Translations under genes and position numbers: made by a program | Notes under the pieces: generated by a model | What the model saw: the letters and a program-made list of their open reading frames with translations, nothing else | Databases searched by the model: none | Told to the model about the DNA's origin: nothing | NCBI RefSeq assembly: GCF_947487515.1 | Contig: NZ_CANKWO010000002.1 | Coordinates: 248,001 to 312,000, forward strand | Length of the DNA: 64,000 nt | Direction of reading: 5' to 3' | From: an uncultured Litoreibacter sp. | Lineage (GTDB): Bacteria; Pseudomonadota; Alphaproteobacteria; Rhodobacterales; Rhodobacteraceae | In this document: positions 54,478 through 64,000 of the stretch, piece after piece | Layout: each line of letters starts with the position of its first letter | How positions within the stretch are numbered: position 1 is the stretch's first letter

Positions 54478-55065
54478 TTATTTACCCGAACGTGGACCGC
54501 CCGAACGCGCCGAGGATGGCGCACGGTAGTTGCCGCGTGGCGTCGTTTTACGGTTGTTGAAGCTGCCTTTCGACACGCCCGCTGCACGTTGACGGCCAAT
54601 CAAGCTGCCGATCAATGCGCCAGCCAAGAAACCTGTACCAGAGAAGCGCAAGCCAGAAGAGTTGCCCGAAGCATCCGTCGCAATCAGACGGTTGTTTTCT
54701 TCATCAATCTCAACGGTGAATACTTTGCCTTCGTTGGAATCTTGAATGCCATTCCCGTTGGCGTCAGCAAAGCCCAAGAATCTTGCGTCCTTTTGAACTT
54801 CCAGACCAAGCGTATTGTCGTAGAAGCGAGGATCAGAATTCAAAATGGAAGTATAGAACCGCGTAAATTCGGTCATTTGGTCTTCGGAAACTTCAGTCAC
54901 GCCCTGATTTCCAAGGTGGCCTTGATATTCCTGCAACGCATATTCAGTGCGATCAAGAACTTGCCCCAAATCTGCGGTTTGCTCTTTGCTATCGCCAAAA
55001 AACATCGAATATCCGACAAAGCCAACGACTGCGACGATGGCCAGTGTTTTAATGTTTCCAAACAT
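54478..55065 (-). CDS. Unknown membrane-anchored protein with EF-hand-like loop and glycine zipper
   Basis: A 195-residue protein not recognised as a named family. It has an N-terminal membrane segment (KTLAIVAVVGFVGYSMFFG), a helical stretch, and a calcium-binding-like loop DANGNGIQDSNEG near residue 100. A second hydrophobic glycine-zipper segment follows (GTGFLAGALIGSLIGRQ), then a basic low-complexity tail rich in R, S, G (RGNYRAPSSARSGGPRSGK). GAGGGA precedes the ATG. It lies between the rhomboid-GNAT gene and speE. The zipper suggests insertion or oligomerisation in a membrane; the rhomboid neighbour could be its protease. Function unknown. Confidence 0.7.
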   Translation of the reverse strand: MFGNIKTLAIVAVVGFVGYSMFFGDSKEQTADLGQVLDRTEYALQEYQGHLGNQGVTEVSEDQMTEFTRFYTSILNSDPRFYDNTLGLEVQKDARFLGFADANGNGIQDSNEGKVFTVEIDEENNRLIATDASGNSSGLRFSGTGFLAGALIGSLIGRQRAAGVSKGSFNNRKTTPRGNYRAPSSARSGGPRSGK

Positions 55066-55103
55066 AATTTTCCCTCAGAAACTGTTGTACGTATTAGCTC
55101 ACA

Positions 55104-56393
55104 TTATTGTGTTAATGAACACGACCACCACACCTGATGCAATGAAGGATTGTAATATCCTTCAAGTGATCCGCATTTTATGAACCCTTGCGCTTCTAGT
55201 GCCACGGCGTTTTCTTCAGAGATGTCGCTCGGGATGGCCAACACAACCATCCGAGCGGATTTTTTCGCTGCTTTCTCCAAGGCGTAATCCAATCCCGCCA
55301 TGCCGACGGGCCGCTCTTCCCACACCAGTCCCATGACGTTCTTGGTCTCGGGTTCAGGAGCGACGTCATTGATGGCCAACCCTGTGTTCGTCGAAACGGG
55401 TTCTTCACCTTCTGGTTCATACTCTGGGTTATTAAGCCCATACACGATCTTTGCCTCGGAAGGGTTATGGTAGTCTGGGACTTTCAGCTCCACGACGGCA
55501 CCGAAGTCCTCATACATCTTATGCGCACCTGCATAAATATCGCGCCCGAAGTCGCGGTAGTCGCTGGTGGCGATGAATATTTTGCGTATGCCGAAATCCT
55601 TCAGCTTCCCTAGTAAGTCGTTGAGCATTTGACTGCCCAGCCCAGTTCCAAGGTGGTCTTGATCCAGATAGGTCCACGACAGCCATGCAATGTCATGCAC
55701 TTGTTCATCCAGACTATAGCCGGTCACGCCAATGACCTCGCCCTTTTGCATCAGGACAAACATCTGCTCCAAGCCGCCGTCAAAGAATTCGTCTTCGGCT
55801 TCCTTTGCATCATCACTATCGGTCTGATCGATGATCGAAACCACCTTCGCAATATGGACGTGCTGCATAGGTTTCAGCGTCGGGGATTTACTGCCGAAAA
55901 GTTTTTCAAACATAACAAAGGATCCTCCAATTAGGGCTCCGGAAATATGGACATATACGGCGAAAGTTTGGGAAAGATAAAGCCACTCCGACACCAGCAA
56001 AACAAAAAGACATGCGCTGAACACGAAGAAAGACCCTCTGGTGCGATCCGCCAAAACTCCGTAACTCAAAAGCCCGTATGAAATCCCAGATGCCCCGACA
56101 AATTTCGGCCCAGAGATATAGAATTGCGCAATCGTTCCAAGCAGAACACAGGCCAGTATCAAGACAAGGGTGCGCCTTCGGCCCAAGCGCGGCTCGGCGA
56201 ACAGCCCGCCGAAAAAGATGACCAAAATGTTGCCGCCCAGATGTGACAGATCCCCATGCCGCAGAACTCCTGCGAAGGCATCCCCTAGCCCATCTTGATA
56301 CCGCAAAGAATGCGTGGCCCCCGTCATGGCATAGGCCCCAAGCAGCAGCACAATCACGCCGGTGGTTACGACAAAGTCGCGCAGCTCACTCAC
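55104..56393 (-). CDS. Rhomboid protease fused to GNAT acetyltransferase domain
   Basis: The 429-residue protein begins with six membrane segments that form a rhomboid: HLGGN, the catalytic serine in GASGISYGLL and the catalytic histidine in VHISGALIGGSF are all present. Residues 200-315 are a GNAT domain (KGEVIGVTGYSLDEQVHDIAWLSWTYLDQDHLGTGLGSQML, the acetyl-CoA loop). The last 90 residues look like a second GNAT C-terminal half (ALEAQGFIKCGSLEGYYNPSLHQVWW). The start is GTG at 56393 with GAGG at good spacing. It lies between speD and a membrane protein; acetylation of a polyamine is a reasonable guess. Confidence 0.85.
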   Translation of the reverse strand: MSELRDFVVTTGVIVLLLGAYAMTGATHSLRYQDGLGDAFAGVLRHGDLSHLGGNILVIFFGGLFAEPRLGRRRTLVLILACVLLGTIAQFYISGPKFVGASGISYGLLSYGVLADRTRGSFFVFSACLFVLLVSEWLYLSQTFAVYVHISGALIGGSFVMFEKLFGSKSPTLKPMQHVHIAKVVSIIDQTDSDDAKEAEDEFFDGGLEQMFVLMQKGEVIGVTGYSLDEQVHDIAWLSWTYLDQDHLGTGLGSQMLNDLLGKLKDFGIRKIFIATSDYRDFGRDIYAGAHKMYEDFGAVVELKVPDYHNPSEAKIVYGLNNPEYEPEGEEPVSTNTGLAINDVAPEPETKNVMGLVWEERPVGMAGLDYALEKAAKKSARMVVLAIPSDISEENAVALEAQGFIKCGSLEGYYNPSLHQVWWSCSLTQ

Positions 56394-56408
56394 GTGACTT
56401 TGCCTCGA

Positions 56409-56801
56409 TCAACGGGAATTTGTCAGCGCAGACATGGTGCCACGGTGAATCATTTGTACCTGCTCTTGCTGCGGGTCAAAGTAGTCTTTGAGCACGGCCA
56501 AACTCAGCCGCGCATCGACGTCCCCACACATGAAGATGTCGATCGCAGCATAGTTATTCTCGGGCCATGTATGGATTGAGATGTGAGATTCTGCCAACAA
56601 AGCAACCCCTGTGAACCCATAGCGGTCCCCAAAGTCATGAACATTCACGTCCAACACGGTTGCGCCTGCTGCCTCGGCCGCTGCACGTAAAACTGTGACC
56701 GCATCGGCGCCATCAAACAATCGAGATGCCCCATAAAAATCCGCGATCAGATGCTGCCCAAGTGCATTGGGGGACATTTCATTCGTCGGCACGTTATTCA
56801 T
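56409..56801 (-). CDS. speD: S-adenosylmethionine decarboxylase proenzyme
   Basis: The 130-residue pyruvoyl enzyme makes decarboxylated SAM, the aminopropyl donor. LLAESHISIHTWPENNYAAIDIFMCGD contains the self-cleavage Glu-Ser bond, the catalytic histidine and cysteine. It is the short prokaryotic class. The track ORF begins at 56948, but the ATG at 56801 gives the proper N-terminus. It is followed by the rhomboid-GNAT gene after 15 bases and works with the membrane SpeE further down. Confidence 0.93.
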   Translation of the reverse strand: MNNVPTNEMSPNALGQHLIADFYGASRLFDGADAVTVLRAAAEAAGATVLDVNVHDFGDRYGFTGVALLAESHISIHTWPENNYAAIDIFMCGDVDARLSLAVLKDYFDPQQEQVQMIHRGTMSALTNSR

Positions 56802-56964
56802 CGTAAATTTCTTCCCTCGTAATGCTCTAGACCTGACGTGCCAACCGCCGTCTGTCAATTCCTTAACAAGCGATGCGGATGACCACAGCTTTAGATCTAC
56901 TCCACATACTGGTGCATAAGGAGCAAACTGATAACATTCAGAATTCACGAAGAGAGAAGGTTAC

Positions 56965-56990
56965 CTAGCATTGGCGTGGCTTCTAATTTG
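56965..56990. repeat. 26-bp direct repeat, copy 1
   Basis: CTAGCATTGGCGTGGCTTCTAATTTG covers the stop codon and 3' flank of the unknown 286-residue gene. An identical copy lies 872 bases away around that gene's start codon. Confidence 0.95.
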
Positions 56991-57843
56991 CGCCCAAGAC
57001 AGGCACATCGTCCATCGTGCATTTCTCAAAGACATATTCGTCAATCAAGGGCCGCAGAACCTCGTCGCTTATGTCCTCGCGGGACCAGTCTTTGAGATGT
57101 TCCAGCAAAACGGGGTCGTCAGAGATACCACGACGACCAGGGCCAAAGTGGAAGTGATAATCAAGGTTCCTCAAGCACCTGTTCGAACCAGCCATCGTCC
57201 CCACGTGAAACCCAAATCCATAGGGCGTCTTCGGTCGGCGTTCGTCATATGTCATGTTGAGACTAAGACTATGAGCAAAGGCTTTGCCATTTTTCACGAA
57301 CACGACTTCGCTGCTCAAGAGGGTTAACTTACGCGATCCGTAGATGCCTTTGGGATGAAATCGACCCAGAGACACCATCATGCTGTCGTAGAGTTCTTCG
57401 TCGGTTCGGTCACCCAATCCACCGCTAACTTCTTCTACCACAGGCATCGCTTCGACCATTCTGGCGTATTCAATGTATTTGCGCGCCGCTTCTTCGCGCG
57501 TGTAACGTCCGCGGCGTTCTAAAGCGTTGATACTTTCAACATAGCCTTGGCTGGACCAATAACTGACACGCGCGTTCGGGAACTCGAGCACGTTATCCCC
57601 CAGCAACAGCGTCGCGCGGCCATTGAATGAAGGGGCATGACGCGTCCACATTGTTCCGTCGTCGTCAACCTTGTAAACAACAGGAGGGAATTCATAATTC
57701 TCGCTACGCGCTTCTAACTCTTGCGCGCTATGCATAACGCCCAAGGTAATGGCTTGATCCAGTCCGCCGAAAAGCAAATACGCAAAGATGCTAACGAAAA
57801 CCGCCGCGGTGGACGTCATGATGATGAAGTCTTTATCTAGCAT
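56983..57843 (-). CDS. Unknown membrane-anchored protein upstream of speD
   Basis: A 286-residue protein I do not recognise. One membrane segment near the N-terminus (IIMTSTAAVFVSIFAYLLF) is followed by a soluble domain with VVYKVDDDGTMWTRHAPSFNGRATLLLG, a helical RRGRYTREEAARKYIEYARMV and HFHFGPGRRGISDDPVLLEHLKDW. The ATG at 57843 is preferred to the track start at 57927. The start and the stop both lie inside copies of the same 26-bp repeat. It is 182 bases upstream of speD and same-strand, so a link to the polyamine cluster is possible but not shown. Confidence 0.65.
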   Translation of the reverse strand: MLDKDFIIMTSTAAVFVSIFAYLLFGGLDQAITLGVMHSAQELEARSENYEFPPVVYKVDDDGTMWTRHAPSFNGRATLLLGDNVLEFPNARVSYWSSQGYVESINALERRGRYTREEAARKYIEYARMVEAMPVVEEVSGGLGDRTDEELYDSMMVSLGRFHPKGIYGSRKLTLLSSEVVFVKNGKAFAHSLSLNMTYDERRPKTPYGFGFHVGTMAGSNRCLRNLDYHFHFGPGRRGISDDPVLLEHLKDWSREDISDEVLRPLIDEYVFEKCTMDDVPVLGAN

Positions 57844-58087
57844 TGGCGTGGCTTCTAATTTGTGCGTGTTCAGAATTAATATAGGCACTATCTTCTGCAT
57901 TAGCATAAAGGGTGTCGAAGGCTGCAATTACGCTCTCCGTGTACTTCATACGATCACTCTTTTCGGTGACATTGCCGGTGTTGAAGGGGAAGAGGTACTT
58001 ATTGTAAGGCGTTTCAGTAATCCGCAACCAACTATACAAAACCGCGCAATCGACGCACCACGCACCATACAGAGGCGAGAAATACAT
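57833..58087 (-). CDS. Possible small protein overlapping the unknown gene's start
   Basis: An 84-residue frame (MYFSPLYGAWCVDCAVLYSW, then MKYTESVIAAFDTLYANAEDSAYINSEHAQ) whose stop overlaps the start of the 286-residue gene by 11 bases. It has no clear ribosome site and no known family. Its C-terminal QIRSHANAR is encoded by the 26-bp repeat, and the second repeat copy would encode the same peptide in the matching frame. This may be the tail of a decayed gene. Confidence 0.3.
   Translation of the reverse strand: MYFSPLYGAWCVDCAVLYSWLRITETPYNKYLFPFNTGNVTEKSDRMKYTESVIAAFDTLYANAEDSAYINSEHAQIRSHANAR
57837..57862. repeat. 26-bp direct repeat, copy 2
   Basis: Identical to copy 1 (CTAGCATTGGCGTGGCTTCTAATTTG). 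It spans the start codon and leader of the 286-residue gene and the last codons of the small ORF upstream of it. Confidence 0.95.
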
Positions 58088-58200
58088 CGTTTTTTCAAGA
58101 AAATTCAGTGTTCTTGTAACGGGAGCGGTTTACTCAGTCGCTTAATTAGTAGCCTTTGCAAAAAATGCCCTTTGATGGGGCTAAAAACTAGGTCAACCAA

Positions 58201-58362
58201 TTGGATGAGAATTTTGAGGAAGTCCTAGGGGCCATCGCTGATGCCGAATGGGCCCGGTCACTCAGCCGCTGGAATAAACTTGGCCCCGACTTGTTGCTTC
58301 CAAACCAAGAAGAGAGGGATGAAATTGTTGTGGCCATTCGACGGCTGCTCAAATCAACATGA
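58201..58362 (+). pseudogene. Possible gene fragment (acidic helical peptide)
   Basis: A 53-codon open frame from a TTG: LDENFEEVLGAIADAEWARS, then LLLPNQEERDEIVVAIRRLL. The composition looks protein-like (amphipathic helices), but there is no ATG and a stop lies just upstream, so it is best read as a fragment of an unknown gene. Confidence 0.3.
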
Positions 58363-58688
58363 TCTTGGGTTATGGCGGAGTTGCATGATGATCAGAGGCA
58401 GAAACAGATCGCTAAGGAAGCTGTCAGCATAGATCCGACTTCTCGATCTTGACCAGACTATGTGATGAAAAGAGCATCAAGATGAGTGTCGTCGTTGCGG
58501 CACTTGAGGTGGAGGTCAAGTAGTCTTCAGGACGATCCTGCCCCGGGTATTTTCAAAACGAGCTAAGAATTTCAACTCGCAACCCGGTTTGGGCTGGTCC
58601 ATATGTTCGAATGAACCCGTAGGTTACCAATAGTAGTGACGCGGCTTACGGCTGGTTGACTATGTGAGGTTGCCAGGATCGCCGCCTT

Positions 58689-58898
58689 TCAGCAGTTCCA
58701 GCTCACGCTTCCGCTCTGTGCGCCGCGAAGGGCGCGTATGAAGAAGTTTGTCGAGCCAACGCGGCCAGTTTGGAGCCAGCGTACATCTTCAGCCGCAAGC
58801 TTGAGACGGCGCTCAAGTCCTTTGGTTGAATAGCCTTTGTTCCGGTCAGAAATGCGCGACCGTTTTCGTTTGTATTGGGCCATGTCGAGGCCTTTCAT
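58689..58898 (-). pseudogene. Possible frameshifted small basic protein
   Basis: The frame begins MAQYKRKRSRISDRNKGYSTKGLERRLKLAAEDV and then loses protein-like character. A different frame over the same bases reads APNWPRWLDKLLHTRPSRRT, then ELELLKGGDPGNLT before a stop, which looks like its continuation. I infer one frameshift. The family is unknown. Confidence 0.3.
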
Positions 58899-59202
58899 GC
58901 AGTTTCGTTACTACATGGCGTTCTCCAATTCTGTGGTTTTCGGGCTCACCGCTGGCCGTGCATCCGCCAGCCGCACTAAATATGGCTTGGTAAAAGTTCG
59001 CGCAAAAGAAATCTCGCAGCTGCAGGACTCTTCAGTTGTTCTTTGCACATTCCCGTGACGGATCCGCACTTCTTCATAACATCAGATGAAGGGAAACAGG
59101 TCGCATAAAACGGGCAATATGTTTCCGCCATGGCGTGATCCAAAAATGTCGTTCACGTCCTCCTTGCTGTCTATCGGGTTGGCAGCCTAGACCTTTCCAG
59201 TC

Positions 59203-60114
59203 ATGTTCCAAATTATGGCATTTGGCGTATTCATCCATCGTACAGACTCAATCTACGACGACGTACCGTCGGAGCGATATCAGTTCCCAAAGCAGTACCT
59301 GACGCGTGTTCAACGGTGTAAGGGTGATTGGATTGTCTATCTCGAACCCAGCAAGGTTAAGAACACCAAGGGCTACTTTGCGGTCGCCAAAGTTCAGGAC
59401 GCAATCCCCGACCTAAGGAATGCGGGCATGCACCTGGCTGTGATCGAACCGGGGACATATCTCGACTTCGGCGATCCTGTACCCTTTCGTGATGCAGATG
59501 ATGTTGTCGAGCAAGGCCTTCTCAATGACCTTGGTAAGATTTCAGGGCGTGCCCAGGCGGCTGTACGACCACTTTCATCAACAGACTTTGCCCGGATTGT
59601 TGAGCGTGGCCTTGGAACCGGCGACGACATTCTCCCTCGGATCGGTCAAGCTGGTGCAGAGGTTGGTTTCAAAGAGGATCAGACACCTTTTCAATTGCCG
59701 TCTGCACGGGAGCGCGTCAATCAATTGACGAGCAGAACTGTTCGCGACCGGAATTTTCGAAAGAACGTTCTCCGCGCATACGGCGAACGATGCGCTATCA
59801 CTGGATTGCGGCTGATCAACGGTGGTGGCCGTGCAGAGGTCGAAGCGGCGCACATTAGGCCAGTCGAACATGATGGCCCCGACATCGTTAGTAACGGAAT
59901 GGCACTATCTGGTACAGCACACTGGATGTTCGATAGGGGGCTGGTAGGGTTATCAGATGAATTAGAGATCCTGGTCTCAAGGCAAGCTAACGACCCTGAT
60001 GCTGTGAAATCCATGCTCAACAGTTCAGGCCACCTTTTGGTACCTGGACGGCCAGCGGAACGACCACGTGCAGAATTTGTGGCTTGGCATCGAGAACACT
60101 GTTTCAAACATTGA
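59203..60114 (+). CDS. HNH endonuclease with N-terminal reader-like domain
   Basis: The 303-residue protein has a C-terminal HNH_2-type nuclease fold: RNFRKNVLRAYGERCAITGL, VEAAHIRPVEHDGPDIVSNGMALSGTAHWMFDRGLVGL. The first 110 residues (FGVFIHRTDSIYDDVPSERYQFPKQYLTRV, WIVYLEPSKVKNTKGYFAVAKV) are an all-beta region resembling EVE/PUA-like domains that recognise modified bases; this is a resemblance only. Such a build would suit a modification-dependent restriction enzyme. No methyltransferase is adjacent. An alternative ATG is at 59215. Confidence 0.75.
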   Translation: MFQIMAFGVFIHRTDSIYDDVPSERYQFPKQYLTRVQRCKGDWIVYLEPSKVKNTKGYFAVAKVQDAIPDLRNAGMHLAVIEPGTYLDFGDPVPFRDADDVVEQGLLNDLGKISGRAQAAVRPLSSTDFARIVERGLGTGDDILPRIGQAGAEVGFKEDQTPFQLPSARERVNQLTSRTVRDRNFRKNVLRAYGERCAITGLRLINGGGRAEVEAAHIRPVEHDGPDIVSNGMALSGTAHWMFDRGLVGLSDELEILVSRQANDPDAVKSMLNSSGHLLVPGRPAERPRAEFVAWHREHCFKH

Positions 60115-60220
60115 GGTTTCGCGCGCCTAAGCCTGCGCTAGAAGGCAATCATAGGCATGGATTTGAATGCGTAAGTCAGAATGCGTGTTAGTGTGGCCTT
60201 GTCACGTGAGGGAGTAACAC

Positions 60221-60652
60221 ATGAGAGTTTGTGGATGTGAGATATCGGCACAGGAGGTTCGGCTTGCCGTTGTCTACCTGAATGATGAAGGCGACGTGGA
60301 AATGCTTCGCTTGAAGGCCACACGAATAGAGCTTGAGGATGACACGTCCGAGGCCGATCTTCGATCATTCTTAGCGGATCTTCAGGAATTTTGCCGAAAG
60401 CATGAAATCGATACCTTCGTTATCAAGACGCGCGCCAAGAAAGGCCGCATGGCAGGTGGAGCGGTATCCTTCAAAATCGAAACTCTGATTCAACTCATTG
60501 AGGGCTGCGAGACCAAGTTCGTAAGTCCGGTCGCGCTCGCGCACTTTGCCAAGAAAGATCTTGAAAAATATCCAGAGAAGCTTCCGGTTTATTTAAAGAA
60601 CGCCTTTCTTGCCGGCGCTTATGCTTTGACGAAGTCAGGGTTTTTAGCCTAG
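60221..60652 (+). CDS. DUF3010 family protein
   Basis: A 143-residue protein with MRVCGCEISAQEVRLAVVYL at the start and KTRAKKGRMAGGAVSFKIETLIQLIEGCETKFVSPVALA in the middle, the pattern of DUF3010. The fold looks RNase H/RuvC-like at the N-terminus (first strand with acidic residue) but catalytic residues are not certain. GAGGGAG lies 8 bases before the ATG. Upstream is the HNH gene, same strand, 106 bases away. Function unknown. Confidence 0.75.
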   Translation: MRVCGCEISAQEVRLAVVYLNDEGDVEMLRLKATRIELEDDTSEADLRSFLADLQEFCRKHEIDTFVIKTRAKKGRMAGGAVSFKIETLIQLIEGCETKFVSPVALAHFAKKDLEKYPEKLPVYLKNAFLAGAYALTKSGFLA

Positions 60653-60721
60653 CGAAGATCGTGAAATTCAGCACAATCAAGCTTATGCAGGCACATATTA
60701 CTCTTCAATGATGGGAACCCC

Positions 60722-60755
60722 AAAAGGGGCGCTACCTGCGCCCCTTCTTTTTCTT
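60722..60755. terminator. Bidirectional terminator between DUF3010 and rtcB
   Basis: GGGGCGC-TACCT-GCGCCCC is a perfect 7-bp stem with TTCTTTTTCTT on the plus side and TTTT on the minus side. It serves both convergent genes and overlaps the last codons of the RtcB fusion. Confidence 0.8.
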
Positions 60756-62729
60756 GTTCATCCAAAATGGAGGTACATCACCCGCCATCATGCAGCCGTA
60801 AGGGTCGATGTAATCGACAATATCAGCCAGACCAAAGCTGTCGATCTGACGCACGACATTGGCCGCATTTTTGTACGACGACGGCAGTTCCGACGCATCA
60901 ATGCCACCGGCGGGAAAGCGGATATCCAATCCCGCCGTTTCAGCCGCCAAAGCCTGCTCTGCCGTCATATCCCCCATCCGGCGCTTGTGCTCGGATCGGG
61001 AAAAGTTACGGCCCGCCCCATGCGGGGAAAAGCCCAAAGCATGATCGGCATCTGACCCACGCACGACCAAAACAGGCTCGGACATGTTCAGCGGGATCAG
61101 TGTCAGACCCGTCGCATCAGCGGCATAATCACCCCAAGCTGGCGTCGCCCCCTTGCCATGATAGAACAGATCACCGCGCTTAAAGACGAAGTTGTGCTCG
61201 TTCCAAAACCTCTCACCCGGTTGTGCGCTGGACCCTTCCACAGTCGCCTGATGGATGGCGTTGTGGTTGGCCTTAGTCCATTTGCGGATCAGTTGCAGAG
61301 CAGCCCAGTAGTCCTGACCATCCTGCGTATCCGCTGGAATCCAAGCATTCTGCTTCAGCGTGTTTGGCGATAGCTTCTTGCGGTACTTCTCCGCTACTTC
61401 CATTCCCAGCTTGTACAGAACGGCCCCTGGCCCACGCGACCCGTGGTGGGTCACGATGGCCGTGCGTCCGCTGTTGCGGGACTTGCCCACAAACAAGAAA
61501 TGGTTGCCATCGCCTTGCGTCCCCAAATGCTCCACTGCCATGCGGAGGATCTTAGGATTGCTCAAAAAGCGGTTCTCACGAAACCCGTCCATTAGGTTTT
61601 GCGACAAGGTAAAGCGTTTGCCGTTCTGCCGCCCGCCGGGACCAAAATGCGTGACCTTCTCTGCCGCATCCAGCACCGCTTTAGGTTCAATCTCACCCAA
61701 ATCGGTCATCATGACGGAACAACAGATATCAGCCGAGTGCATACCCGGATGGATCGCATTCTTAGCTGCAACAACCCCGCCCACTGGGATCGTGCCCATT
61801 GGACCAGCGGGGCACGCATCAGGCATCACCGCAGCAGACACAACAGTCGGTGTGCGCATAACAGCCATCATCGTGTCGCGCACATCGGCAAGGTTCTTTA
61901 CCTCATCCGCATCGTCAGACGCTTCGATGTTGAAATGAAACGGCACATCACCCGCCTTTTGCAAAGGGATCGTTGGGGGTGGCGGAGGGGGTTTCATCCC
62001 TTCCAGCTTGGCCCTGATCTGATCCTCACTATAGCCAGCGGCAAGTCCCGCTTGGGCAATTTCCAGAAGGCGACCGAACTCCTTGCTAGGAATATGGCCC
62101 CAAGCCTTAAGCGTTTCACCTGTAATTTCTATCTGTGTCATTGTTTTCTCTTCACCCGCTGAATAATCAACGCTTTTTTCAATTTTCAAATATGCCGTAG
62201 GCACGTGATCCGTCAGCCAGACACCATTGTCGGCCTGATAGAATGCGTACCCGGCTCGGTGCATTTCACCCGCAGCCACAATCAAGATCACCGGCGCACC
62301 ATGGCGCGCGCCAACCTTGAGAGCCGTTTGCGGGTCACCCGATAAATGCACCTGCTGGCGAGACATCGGGCGCAGCCCATCAGTCATGATCGCCGTGACG
62401 GTCACCTCTGCTGTACCATGGTAAAGCCGCGATGGCGGTTCAATCGCTTCCACACCGAGATCAACGGCAATCGAATGTCCTTGAGCGGCACGGATTTGGT
62501 CGCCCGTATCCGACAAGCTAAGCCGTTTTTTGTCATTGGTTTCCACAATTTCGACCAGTTGAGCTTGGCTTATGGGCAGGTCGTGGTCGGCCAATGCCGT
62601 CAGCAACACTTCCACCGCAACCCACCCCTCTGAATCGGGCGTTAGGTCAAGCTTCTCGGGCGTATGGCGCAAAACCTGCGCTAACAACCTGCTCACTTTT
62701 TGCAGGTGTTTTTTCTCTTTGTTTGTCAT
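60732..62729 (-). CDS. Fusion of RNA 2'-phosphotransferase (Tpt1/KptA) and RNA ligase RtcB
   Basis: A 665-residue single chain. Residues 1-185 are Tpt1/KptA: LLAQVLRHTPEKLDLTPDSEGWV (catalytic Arg-His), ETNDKKRLSL, AAQGHS, RQQVHLSGD and VGARHGAPVIL; this enzyme removes an internal 2'-phosphate using NAD. Residues 197-665 are RtcB, which joins 2',3'-cyclic phosphate to 5'-OH RNA ends with GTP. It has HSADICC, GTQGDGNHF, HHGSRGPG, and the guanylated histidine in FSPHGAGRNFSR. The ATG at 62729 follows the upstream stop by 5 bases. A second ATG at 62141, exactly where RtcB begins, has GGTGAAGAG upstream and could give free RtcB. Pairing these two activities in one protein is unusual. Confidence 0.92.
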   Translation of the reverse strand: MTNKEKKHLQKVSRLLAQVLRHTPEKLDLTPDSEGWVAVEVLLTALADHDLPISQAQLVEIVETNDKKRLSLSDTGDQIRAAQGHSIAVDLGVEAIEPPSRLYHGTAEVTVTAIMTDGLRPMSRQQVHLSGDPQTALKVGARHGAPVILIVAAGEMHRAGYAFYQADNGVWLTDHVPTAYLKIEKSVDYSAGEEKTMTQIEITGETLKAWGHIPSKEFGRLLEIAQAGLAAGYSEDQIRAKLEGMKPPPPPPTIPLQKAGDVPFHFNIEASDDADEVKNLADVRDTMMAVMRTPTVVSAAVMPDACPAGPMGTIPVGGVVAAKNAIHPGMHSADICCSVMMTDLGEIEPKAVLDAAEKVTHFGPGGRQNGKRFTLSQNLMDGFRENRFLSNPKILRMAVEHLGTQGDGNHFLFVGKSRNSGRTAIVTHHGSRGPGAVLYKLGMEVAEKYRKKLSPNTLKQNAWIPADTQDGQDYWAALQLIRKWTKANHNAIHQATVEGSSAQPGERFWNEHNFVFKRGDLFYHGKGATPAWGDYAADATGLTLIPLNMSEPVLVVRGSDADHALGFSPHGAGRNFSRSEHKRRMGDMTAEQALAAETAGLDIRFPAGGIDASELPSSYKNAANVVRQIDSFGLADIVDYIDPYGCMMAGDVPPFWMNKKKKGRR

Positions 62730-62734
62730 CTTCT

Positions 62735-63751
62735 TTAACTCTCTTGGGCGGACAGATTTCCGACCCATTTCTTGTGATAATACGTCATGCGCCATTGCAC
62801 GGATTTCGCTTTGTCATTGGTCAGCGACATGACCAAACCGTCGCCTTCAGGTGCCCCGACCGTGATCAGGTAATCAGCGGCCAGACTACGCAGTTTGGCG
62901 CTTTTGTCTTGACCGGCATGGCGCAGCACCATCGCACGGGTATCCGATGAGACCTCTACCGCGCGTTTTTCGCGACGCGGTACTTTCTGGCGCTGGTTGA
63001 AGACCTTGTCATGCCACACCCAATCAGAGCCTTCGGTCCAACGGGCATGGCCTGTCAGCAAAGTTTCGACTGCAACAGCGCGTACAAATACCGATTGTGC
63101 ACACAGCGCCAAATCGGGCAAAGCCCAATCATAGTCAGGACTGCGCAGAAGTTGCCGTAACGAACCTCCCAACGGCCCAGTTGCGGTTTCCATGAACGTC
63201 GCTTTGACGACCAACGGCCAATCACGATACGCCGCCAACATCTGCGCCACTACAGCACCACCGCGTTCCCAACGGGCAACACGGTCCAGCACAAAAAGGC
63301 AAAGCGGGACCAACTCCTCCTGGCTCAACTTTGGCAAAACAGCCTCAAGTCGAGAAAAAGCGGCTTTGCGAACTTTAGCTGCCCAATCGTTGCGCCGCAG
63401 CAAAAGTGCCGTTAGCGCGGCGGTATCCTCCATTGGTGCAACCCGCACAGCGCGCGCGCGGAGACGCCCATCAGCGGCATGTATTACAAGCAACCCTAAG
63501 GAAGGATTTCTGGAAAATTGCACCCCCCAATCAACAGGGCCTGATTTGGCAATCCACGACACCACCCTGGAAGCAGCTCGCACAGGCGCACGATACGCTT
63601 TGCTCCGAAACGGCTGATCAAGCTGGGCCACTTGTTGCGGGCTTAGTAACTTGCGACGCTCTTCAAACAATGACAGCGCAAACGGATCAAGCTTGCCATT
63701 TGCGGCCTGCCATGCGGCATCAAATCGAGATATGTCTTGGTTCAGTTTCAT
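62735..63751 (-). CDS. Helical-repeat-like protein of the RNA-repair operon, unknown function
   Basis: A 338-residue protein without membrane segments. The middle shows repeated paired helices (ALTALLLRRNDWAAKVRKAAFSRLEAVLPKL, ELVPLCLFVLDRVARWERGGAVVAQML, SAKLRSLAADYLITVG) suggestive of HEAT/ARM-type repeats. The ATG at 63751 has GAGAG upstream and begins MKLNQDISRFDAAWQ; the track start, a GTG at 63814, would run into the upstream RNA. It is 5 bases from the Tpt1-RtcB gene, so it is almost surely co-expressed. It may bind RNA or tether the ligase; function is inferred from context only. Confidence 0.75.
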   Translation of the reverse strand: MKLNQDISRFDAAWQAANGKLDPFALSLFEERRKLLSPQQVAQLDQPFRSKAYRAPVRAASRVVSWIAKSGPVDWGVQFSRNPSLGLLVIHAADGRLRARAVRVAPMEDTAALTALLLRRNDWAAKVRKAAFSRLEAVLPKLSQEELVPLCLFVLDRVARWERGGAVVAQMLAAYRDWPLVVKATFMETATGPLGGSLRQLLRSPDYDWALPDLALCAQSVFVRAVAVETLLTGHARWTEGSDWVWHDKVFNQRQKVPRREKRAVEVSSDTRAMVLRHAGQDKSAKLRSLAADYLITVGAPEGDGLVMSLTNDKAKSVQWRMTYYHKKWVGNLSAQES

Positions 63752-63813
63752 CTTCTTCACTCTCAAATCAAGCCACACGCAGAACAAGGCATTTGCAGGA
63801 TGAATTTCCGCCA

Positions 63814-63989
63814 CCAGATTGCTCTGGGCTGGGGTTGAACCAGCACGGGCCCGAGGGCCCTACCCATGAAGGGCTGCGTCTACCTGTAATCCTGCAGGCA
63901 TTTCTGACTATGGTCCCGGGGGACGAGGATGCGTGAGATGGGTTTCCCCGACCGTTTTGAGCGATGTAATCCCACGGGCATTCCCCCGG
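63814..63989 (-). ncRNA. Structured RNA with tRNA-like module, candidate Y-RNA (YrlA-like)
   Basis: On the minus strand, CCGGGGGA (63989-63982) pairs with TCCCCCGG (63923-63916). It is stacked on ATGC(CC)GTGGGAT with ATCTCACGCAT, giving a 19-bp helix with two bulges that encloses a GGG-GAAA-CCC hairpin. Next come a D-arm, CCTG-CAGGATTA-CAGG, a small hairpin GCCC-TTCAT-GGGT and a long variable-like stem GGGCC-CTCG-GGCCC. A canonical T-arm, GCTGG-TTCAACC-CCAGC, follows, and then CCAGA-GCAA-TCTGG. There is no 7-bp acceptor stem, so it is not a normal tRNA. A bulged helix plus tRNA mimic next to rtcB is how bacterial Y RNAs look. Ends are uncertain. Confidence 0.6.
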
Positions 63990-64000
63990 TTGCTTCCTTT

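What the first reader, a model, noticed from the sequence alone, without database searches (positions are those of the whole stretch)
63814..63989. tRNA-mimic/Y-RNA-like structured RNA heading an RNA-repair operon
The minus strand just upstream of the repair operon folds by eye into a 19-bp bulged helix followed by a tRNA-like module. The module has a canonical 5-bp T-arm with loop TTCAACC, a D-arm with a GG-containing loop, a long variable-like stem and a GNRA hairpin, but no acceptor stem. Bacterial Y RNAs of the YrlA type combine a Ro60-binding helix with a tRNA-like module and sit beside rtcB in several lineages. Here the RNA adjoins a Tpt1-RtcB fusion. It could be a scaffold, a substrate, or a sensor of broken RNA.
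Basis: partly seen in the sequence, partly recalled or inferred. Interest (0 to 1): 0.85.

Follow-up and report, generated by a model that had tools for sequence, protein, structure and literature searches.

The report
D-loop-opened tRNA-Leu-mimic bacterial Y RNA
Just before an RNA-repair gene, and downstream of a Ro60 gene lying beyond the window edge, sit two adjacent Ro60-type "Y RNA" genes, one of which carries a leucine-tRNA look-alike with the Ro60-binding stem inserted in its D-loop, an arrangement different from the known bacterial Y RNA and absent from Rfam.

Summary
A divergent Ro60 (Rsr) gene lies 777 bp beyond the window end, followed by six Y-type RNAs interleaved with tRNA-Pro, -Asn and -Gln genes. 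The "tRNA-like module without acceptor stem" is the inside of Y RNA 6 (zeta, about 63913-63773), which has its own Ro60-type stem. Its D-arm is split: the Y stem is inserted in the D-loop of a class II, leucine-like tRNA whose anticodon loop is lost. Known YrlA instead replaces the anticodon arm with the Y stem. Zeta occurs in 25 Alphaproteobacterial Ro60 loci. RNAalifold, given no structure, recovers the Y, D, T and acceptor helices with compensatory changes in 16 of 24 pairs. A class I version of the same D-loop-opened topology exists in 26 sequences, with covariation in the split D-stem itself. Rfam does not recognise zeta. Likely role: a Ro60-tethered tRNA-elbow adapter or decoy (inferred). 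Side findings: the array tRNAs are spare copies, nearly all Asn/Gln/Lys/Pro across 84 loci, and RtcR has lost GAFTGA in a genome without detectable RpoN.

The parts
63916..63989 (-). Y RNA epsilon: plain Ro60-type stem (CCGGGGGA.AUGCCC.GUGGGAU / AUCUCAC..CUCG.UCCCCCGG) with two small hairpins (UCG/CGG; GGG-GAAA-CCC), no tRNA module.
   Evidence: Same element in 25 loci; consensus fold of 18 with 7 compensated pairs
63773..63913 (-). Y RNA zeta: Ro60-type stem with a class II (tRNA-Leu-like) module opened in the D-loop. Core 63906-63780; outer pairs CCAUA/UGUGG extend it to 63913-63773.
   Evidence: 25 distinct loci at >=90 bits with model R1; de novo RNAalifold structure with 16 compensated pairs
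63902..63906 (-). zeta lower Y stem, 5' strand CAGAA; AUGCC internal loop follows at 63901-63897
63889..63896 (-). zeta upper Y stem, 5' strand UGCAGGAU, followed by UACA
63876..63884 (-). 3' half of the split D-arm, GGUAGACGC (G18 G19 ... D-stem 3' strand)
   Evidence: invariant D-stem in 20 sequences; same letters as the genome's tRNA-Leu(tag) D-arm
   Evidence: hairpin at this place in 20 of 21 non-redundant zeta sequences by MFE folding, with many base-pair types
63847..63860 (-). long variable arm GGGCC-CUCG-GGCCC
63828..63844 (-). T-arm GCUGG-UUCAACC-CCAGC
   Evidence: paired in all aligned sequences, compensatory change U-A to C-G
63814..63827 (-). acceptor stem capped by a GNRA tetraloop, CCAGA-GCAA-UCUGG
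   Evidence: all 5 pairs have compensatory changes
63806..63813 (-). U8 G9 and 5' half of the split D-arm, UGGCGGAA
63780..63801 (-). zeta Y stem 3' strands: upper AUCCUGCA 63801-63794, CUUG 63788-63785, lower UUCUG 63784-63780
62735..63751 (-). uncharacterised 338-aa ORF between zeta and tpt1-rtcB; no Pfam family; no homologue in 60 related genomes
60732..62738 (-). Tpt1 (RNA 2'-phosphotransferase) - RtcB ligase fusion
   Evidence: PF01885 4.8e-43, PF01139 1.4e-35

Best explanation
The interval holds the last two genes of a six-member Y RNA array in an RtcR/Ro60/Tpt1-RtcB RNA-repair locus. Shown by comparison: zeta is a structured RNA with a Ro60-type stem inserted into the D-loop of a tRNA-Leu-like, class II domain whose acceptor stem is closed by a GNRA tetraloop and whose anticodon loop is gone. 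Inferred: Ro60 binds the stem, as in other bacterial Y RNAs, and the module presents a tRNA elbow and long variable arm next to Ro60 while being unable to be charged, to decode, or to be cut in the anticodon. It would recruit a tRNA-binding partner to Ro60 (the YrlA/RYPER type of tether) or titrate such an enzyme while tRNAs are being damaged and repaired. The insertion site corresponds to the D-loop region where natural tRNAs vary in length (my knowledge of tRNA structure), so the elbow contacts could be preserved.
For: Ro60 gene and YrlA-type RNAs in the same array. Zeta in 25 distinct loci at 90-141 bits. RNAalifold without a given structure finds the Y stems, split D-stem, T-arm and capped acceptor; 16 of 24 pairs compensated. 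Acceptor and T-arm always paired, 0 of 2000 shuffles as good. Class I D-loop-opened RNAs in 26 sequences; the split D-stem itself covaries (A-U 18, C-G 2; G-C 17, G-U 4) among 24 compensated pairs of 33. Un-permuting the module makes tRNA-Leu the best of 42 genomic tRNAs in 20 of 20 sequences and raises the best score in all 20. Zeta and epsilon occur without one another and zeta is not always next to rtcB. Role by analogy: YrlA carries D, T and acceptor arms, binds Rsr by its stem and PNPase by its module (PMC8394870); rsr-yrlBA-rtcBA is switched on by tRNA fragments (PMC7790460).
Against: No transcript, Ro60 binding or partner was measured. Zeta's D-stem is invariant, so its covariation support is borrowed from the class I relatives. 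This Ro60 is divergent from the Rsr family model (69 bits against a cut-off of 900). AC and V helices were taken from minimum-energy folds, so their full pairing is partly by construction. Folding energies alone are unremarkable.
Confidence: 0.78

Rival explanations
1. Decoy rather than tether: zeta sits on anticodon nucleases or tRNA-modifying enzymes that read the elbow or variable arm, and so shields tRNAs during damage. Ro60 only stabilises it.
For: All ends are closed and the anticodon loop is missing; several mimics plus spare tRNAs in one damage-response locus. A competitive-inhibitor role for YrlA has been suggested (PMC7790460).
Against: No target is known; most anticodon nucleases need the anticodon loop, which zeta lacks.
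Confidence: 0.25
2. Cis-acting leader of tpt1-rtcB (riboswitch, T-box-like or attenuator) sensing tRNA, rather than a trans-acting Y RNA.
For: It lies directly before the downstream coding genes in this genome and directly before rtcB in L019.
Against: In other loci zeta is followed by further Y RNAs and only then by genes (L026/L077, L044, L047, L065, L074, L091). It has the full Ro60-type stem shared with all array members. No terminator or anti-terminator alternative was seen.
Confidence: 0.07
3. Decayed tRNA-Leu pseudogene with an accidental insertion.
For: Leu-like D- and T-arm sequence.
Against: Conserved architecture with many compensatory changes in 25 loci; capped acceptor and Y stem in every copy.
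Confidence: 0.01
4. Zeta is an ordinary YrlA whose module was misread.
For: It shares the Y stem, and a T-arm followed by a closed acceptor, with YrlA.
Against: YrlA has the whole D-arm after the acceptor (alignment). In zeta the D-arm halves lie at opposite ends of the module, and anticodon and variable hairpins are present. Rfam YrlA does not hit zeta.
Confidence: 0.04

Closest known systems
YrlA bacterial Y RNA (Rfam RF02553; Salmonella structure PDB 6CU1, as cited in PMC8394870 and PMC11472068)
   Same: Ro60-type stem with AUGC / CUUG internal loop; tRNA-like module with T-arm and closed acceptor; circularly permuted relative to tRNA; lies beside rsr and rtcB
   Different: In YrlA the Y stem takes the place of the anticodon arm and the D-arm is intact. 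In zeta the Y stem is in the D-loop, anticodon-position and variable hairpins are kept, and the module is class II Leu-like.
YrlB (Rfam RF02565)
   Same: Short Y stem without a tRNA module; the array's first RNA matches it weakly (25 bits) and epsilon is of this plain kind
   Different: Epsilon has its own conserved pair of inner hairpins and no Rfam match
tRNA-Leu
   Same: D-arm UGGCGGAA..GGUAGACGC, long variable arm, GU spacer, T-arm; best match of 42 tRNAs in 20 of 20 after un-permuting
   Different: Ends closed, no CCA, no anticodon loop, D-loop interrupted by the Y stem
Salmonella rsr-yrlBA-rtcBA operon with RtcR (PMC7790460)
   Same: RtcR, Ro60, Y RNAs and RtcB in one locus
   Different: Here up to eight Y RNAs per locus, several classes, spare tRNA genes between them, Tpt1-RtcB in place of rtcA, and RtcR lacking GAFTGA

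Membership tests
Bacterial Y RNA (broad sense: Ro60-binding stem RNA) | Encoded beside a Ro60/Rsr gene | tested here: met
   vWA_Ro60 and TROVE gene at L002:6339-4777 (window-equivalent 66338-64776), same strand
Bacterial Y RNA (broad sense: Ro60-binding stem RNA) | Two-part stem with the conserved AUGC / CUUG internal loop | tested here: met
   Both epsilon and zeta; same motif as the YrlA matches in the array
Bacterial Y RNA (broad sense: Ro60-binding stem RNA) | Physical binding to Ro60 | not testable with these tools
   -
YrlA (Rfam RF02553) | Covariance-model score at or above the gathering cut-off (69 bits) | tested here: not met
   No hit at E<=5 for zeta or epsilon; no hit for zeta in L035, L060, L106 at E<=0.1
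YrlA (Rfam RF02553) | Module order T-arm, closed acceptor, intact D-arm; Y stem in place of the anticodon arm | tested here: not met
   Order in zeta is D 3' half, AC hairpin, V hairpin, T-arm, capped acceptor, D 5' half
tRNA | Recognised as tRNA by ARAGORN or Rfam RF00005 | tested here: not met
   ARAGORN finds none in the window; no RF00005 match at the zeta interval
tRNA-Leu mimic | Class II core with Leu-type D-arm, long variable arm and T-arm when un-permuted | tested here: met
   (20 of 20 best match is Leu)
tpt1-rtcB cis-regulatory leader | Always directly upstream of the coding gene | tested here: not met
   Other Y RNAs follow zeta in several loci

The most novel reading that the evidence does not exclude
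Alphaproteobacterial Ro60 loci contain a second, undescribed topology of tRNA mimicry (D-loop-opened, in class I and class II versions). The whole array is a tRNA-damage kit: different Y RNAs show different tRNA faces on Ro60, while spare Asn/Gln/Lys/Pro tRNAs replace isoacceptors lost to cleavage until RtcB and Tpt1 repair them.
Probability: 0.4. Interest if true: 0.88.

Novelty: new variant of a known kind. Interest (0 to 1): 0.74.

Why it matters
Bacterial Y RNA was known in one tRNA-mimic layout. A second layout that attaches Ro60 at the elbow instead of at the anticodon end, evolved on both tRNA classes, turns 'which face of tRNA does the Ro60 machine need?' into a testable question. The array also joins Ro60, several mimic classes, a restricted set of spare tRNAs, ligase and 2'-phosphotransferase in one locus, which suggests concrete substrates for this poorly understood repair system.

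Tried and rejected
Rfam search for a known family: no match. Unusual folding energy as evidence: not significant. Coding sequence: the GTG-started ORF frame begins at 63814 and so overlaps zeta's 3' part, but the ATG at 63751 lies beyond zeta and the ORF is absent from 60 related genomes, so zeta is not explained as coding. The unknown ORF as part of the system: not supported. Plasmid copies: none. D-loop-opened RNAs in five phage Ro60 contigs and one other proteobacterial class: those inspected are YrlA-type or plain stems (small sample). Sigma-54 promoter upstream of Ro60: no convincing site. One count of structure pairs failed on string length and was replaced by RNAalifold counts. The primary papers on bacterial Y RNAs (Chen 2014, Sim & Wolin 2018, Wang 2018) are not held, so priority over them is unchecked; a DOI tried from memory for a repair-systems review was a different paper.

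Full report
WHAT LIES BEYOND THE WINDOW. The window is G000:C2:248001-312000, so I fetched the neighbouring DNA as L002 (window coordinate = L002 + 59999). On the minus strand, upstream of the finding, lies a 521-aa protein with the vWA_Ro60 and TROVE domains, matched by solved Rsr and Ro60 structures (2nvo E=2.3e-19). Between it and the window end are a YrlB-like RNA (25 bits), three YrlA-like RNAs (66.9, 63.8, 42.6 bits; gathering cut-off 69) and the genes tRNA-Pro(TGG), tRNA-Asn(GTT) and tRNA-Gln(TTG). Divergently placed are RtcR (NCBIfam equivalog, 714 bits over a cut-off of 650), an RtcB paralogue and PrfH. Downstream, in the window, is a Tpt1-RtcB fusion.

THE OBSERVATION. Rfam finds nothing in 55000-64000 even at E<=5, and the folding energies are ordinary (z -0.99 to -1.63). 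Reading the array with the other Y RNAs as guide shows that the finding is two RNAs. It is found in 25 loci, and its consensus fold has 7 compensated pairs among 18 sequences. Zeta (core 63906-63780) has its own stem, CAGAA.AUGCC.UGCAGGAU pairing with AUCCUGCA...CUUG.UUCUG, and holds the tRNA-like module. The two are independent: each occurs without the other in related loci.

ARCHITECTURE OF ZETA. From 5' to 3' inside the Y stem: UACA-GGUAGACGC (G18, G19 and the 3' strand of the D-stem); a hairpin at the anticodon position with a 3-5 nt loop in most copies; a second hairpin at the variable-arm position; GU; the T-arm; a 5-bp hairpin mostly capped by GNRA, directly stacked on the T-arm as an acceptor would be; UGGCGGAA (U8, G9, 5' strand of the D-stem, A14, A15); then the Y stem 3' strand. 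In this reading the Y stem occupies the D-loop between A15 and G18, a place where natural tRNAs vary in length (my knowledge of tRNA structure). The five-way junction of a class II tRNA is kept, but the helix left open is the D-arm, where a tRNA leaves open the acceptor and YrlA the anticodon arm (alignment; PMC8394870; PMC11472068 calls the YrlA superposition a circular permutation).

IS IT MORE THAN CHANCE? Twenty sequences were found first by pattern and 25 distinct loci by covariance model at 90-141 bits (L077 duplicates L026). RNAalifold, given only the MAFFT alignment, predicts both Y stems, the split D-stem, the T-arm and the capped acceptor; 16 of its 24 pairs have compensatory changes, including all five acceptor pairs. 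In 21 non-redundant sequences the acceptor and T-arm pair in every cell, against shuffled means of 0.896 and 0.960, with 0 of 2000 shuffles reaching this. The anticodon-position and variable hairpins show 3-5 pair types per position, but their boundaries came from folding, so their full pairing is partly built in. When the module is un-permuted in silico, tRNA-Leu is the best match among the genome's 42 tRNAs for all 20 sequences, and un-permuting raises the best score in all 20.

A SECOND CLASS WITH THE SAME TOPOLOGY. Lower-scoring matches of the zeta model are class I versions: UACAGG(N)UAGAGC - hairpin - AGGUC - T-arm - capped acceptor - UAGCUCA, inside a Y stem. Twenty-six sequences come from Rhodobacterales, Mesorhizobium and other Rhizobiales, and Inquilinus. 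Their de novo consensus fold has 24 compensated pairs of 33, including the split D-stem (A-U to C-G, G-C to G-U), the strongest direct proof of D-loop opening. In eight further Ro60 loci from a phylum-wide sample and five phage contigs, I saw D-loop-opened RNAs only in Alphaproteobacteria (L185, L186). One other proteobacterial class (L184) and a phage contig (L174) had YrlA-type RNAs. This is a small sample.

DISTRIBUTION. Ro60 is sporadic: 14 of 397 genomes of the family. The loci share RtcR, Ro60, a Y RNA array and RtcB. Arrays hold up to 8 Y RNAs by my stem scanner, an undercounting heuristic that missed known zeta copies. A scan of 385 Alphaproteobacterial genomes with the zeta model gave strong hits only in the two genomes that had Ro60-locus copies.

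MECHANISM. Shown: sequence, comparative structure and gene neighbourhood. Inferred: Ro60 binds the stem; the module is a tRNA elbow that cannot be charged, cannot decode and cannot be cut in an anticodon. By analogy with YrlA, whose stem binds Rsr and whose module binds PNPase and is modified by DusA and TruB (PMC8394870), zeta most likely tethers a tRNA-binding enzyme to Ro60 (about 0.5 on its own). A decoy role is the main rival (0.25). The regulatory setting, RtcR sensing tRNA fragments in Salmonella (PMC7790460), fits either. I set the overall confidence at 0.78 mainly for identity and structure.

SPARE tRNAs. The genome's 42 typed tRNA genes are nearly all single-copy. The only elongator isoacceptors with two genes are Asn(GTT), Gln(TTG) and Pro(TGG), exactly those in the array, and the array copies are divergent. 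In six of eight Ro60-bearing genomes checked, a second tRNA-Asn with the array-type sequence was found; in the other two the array copy deviates from the search pattern. (My notebook entry says five; six is the count in the output.) Six of seven congeners, whose Ro60 status I did not check, have one. Across 84 loci, 64 of 66 array tRNA calls are Asn, Gln, Lys or Pro, with one Asp and one unresolved. The loci are related by descent, so this is not 66 independent events.

RtcR WITHOUT SIGMA-54. The GAFTGA loop is lost in 77 of 92 RtcR sequences (in this genome LFGHRKQAIPGAGADRRG), while 15 sequences, among them Mesorhizobium, Inquilinus and the non-alpha locus L184, keep it. The sigma-54 DNA-binding domain is not detected in this genome although the control works, and no -24/-12 site is evident. 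RtcR here probably activates without sigma-54, as has been described for Rhodobacter capsulatus NtrC (my memory, not checked).

LIMITS. No expression or binding data; the founding papers on bacterial Y RNAs could not be read, so novelty is stated relative to Rfam 15 and the papers held; the Ro60 is divergent; E-values from R1 and R2 are rough.

Noticed in passing
L002:4008-4365 (window-equivalent 64007-64364), and arrays of 84 related loci: tRNA genes inside Ro60/Y RNA arrays are spare, divergent copies and almost only Asn(GTT), Gln(TTG), Lys(TTT/CTT) or Pro(TGG/CGG); in this genome these are the only duplicated elongator isoacceptors.
   Followed up: partly
L002:6506-8080 (RtcR) and 76 related loci: RtcR has lost the sigma-54-contacting GAFTGA loop, and the genome has no detectable RpoN DNA-binding domain. 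The bEBP may work without sigma-54.
   Followed up: partly
e.g. L020 array (L020:7499-8830, minus strand; array positions about 109-263), L030 and L025 arrays: A further long Y RNA class (about 150-170 nt; GGCGAAUGCC[AG]AAGGAACUACAU..GGUUCAACUCCCCUCCUUGC..GGCGCCCAGACGG) with conserved inner sequence, widespread in the loci but absent from this genome; not solved.
   Followed up: no
L002:4172-4279 (window-equivalent 64171-64278): Y RNA delta: Y stem with a T-arm nested in a short helix plus one hairpin and no D-arm; conserved in L020, L023 and relatives.
   Followed up: no
L002:8334-11244: Divergent operon of RtcB paralogue, PrfH and a BCS1-like AAA ATPase next to the Ro60 locus; the same trio, inverted, in L027 and L030.
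   Followed up: no
window 62735-63751 (-): 338-aa ORF between zeta and tpt1-rtcB with no Pfam family and no homologue in 60 related genomes, apparently specific to this lineage.
   Followed up: partly
L176, L177, L178 (viral contigs): Phage-derived Ro60 genes lie among clusters of tRNA genes.
   Followed up: no
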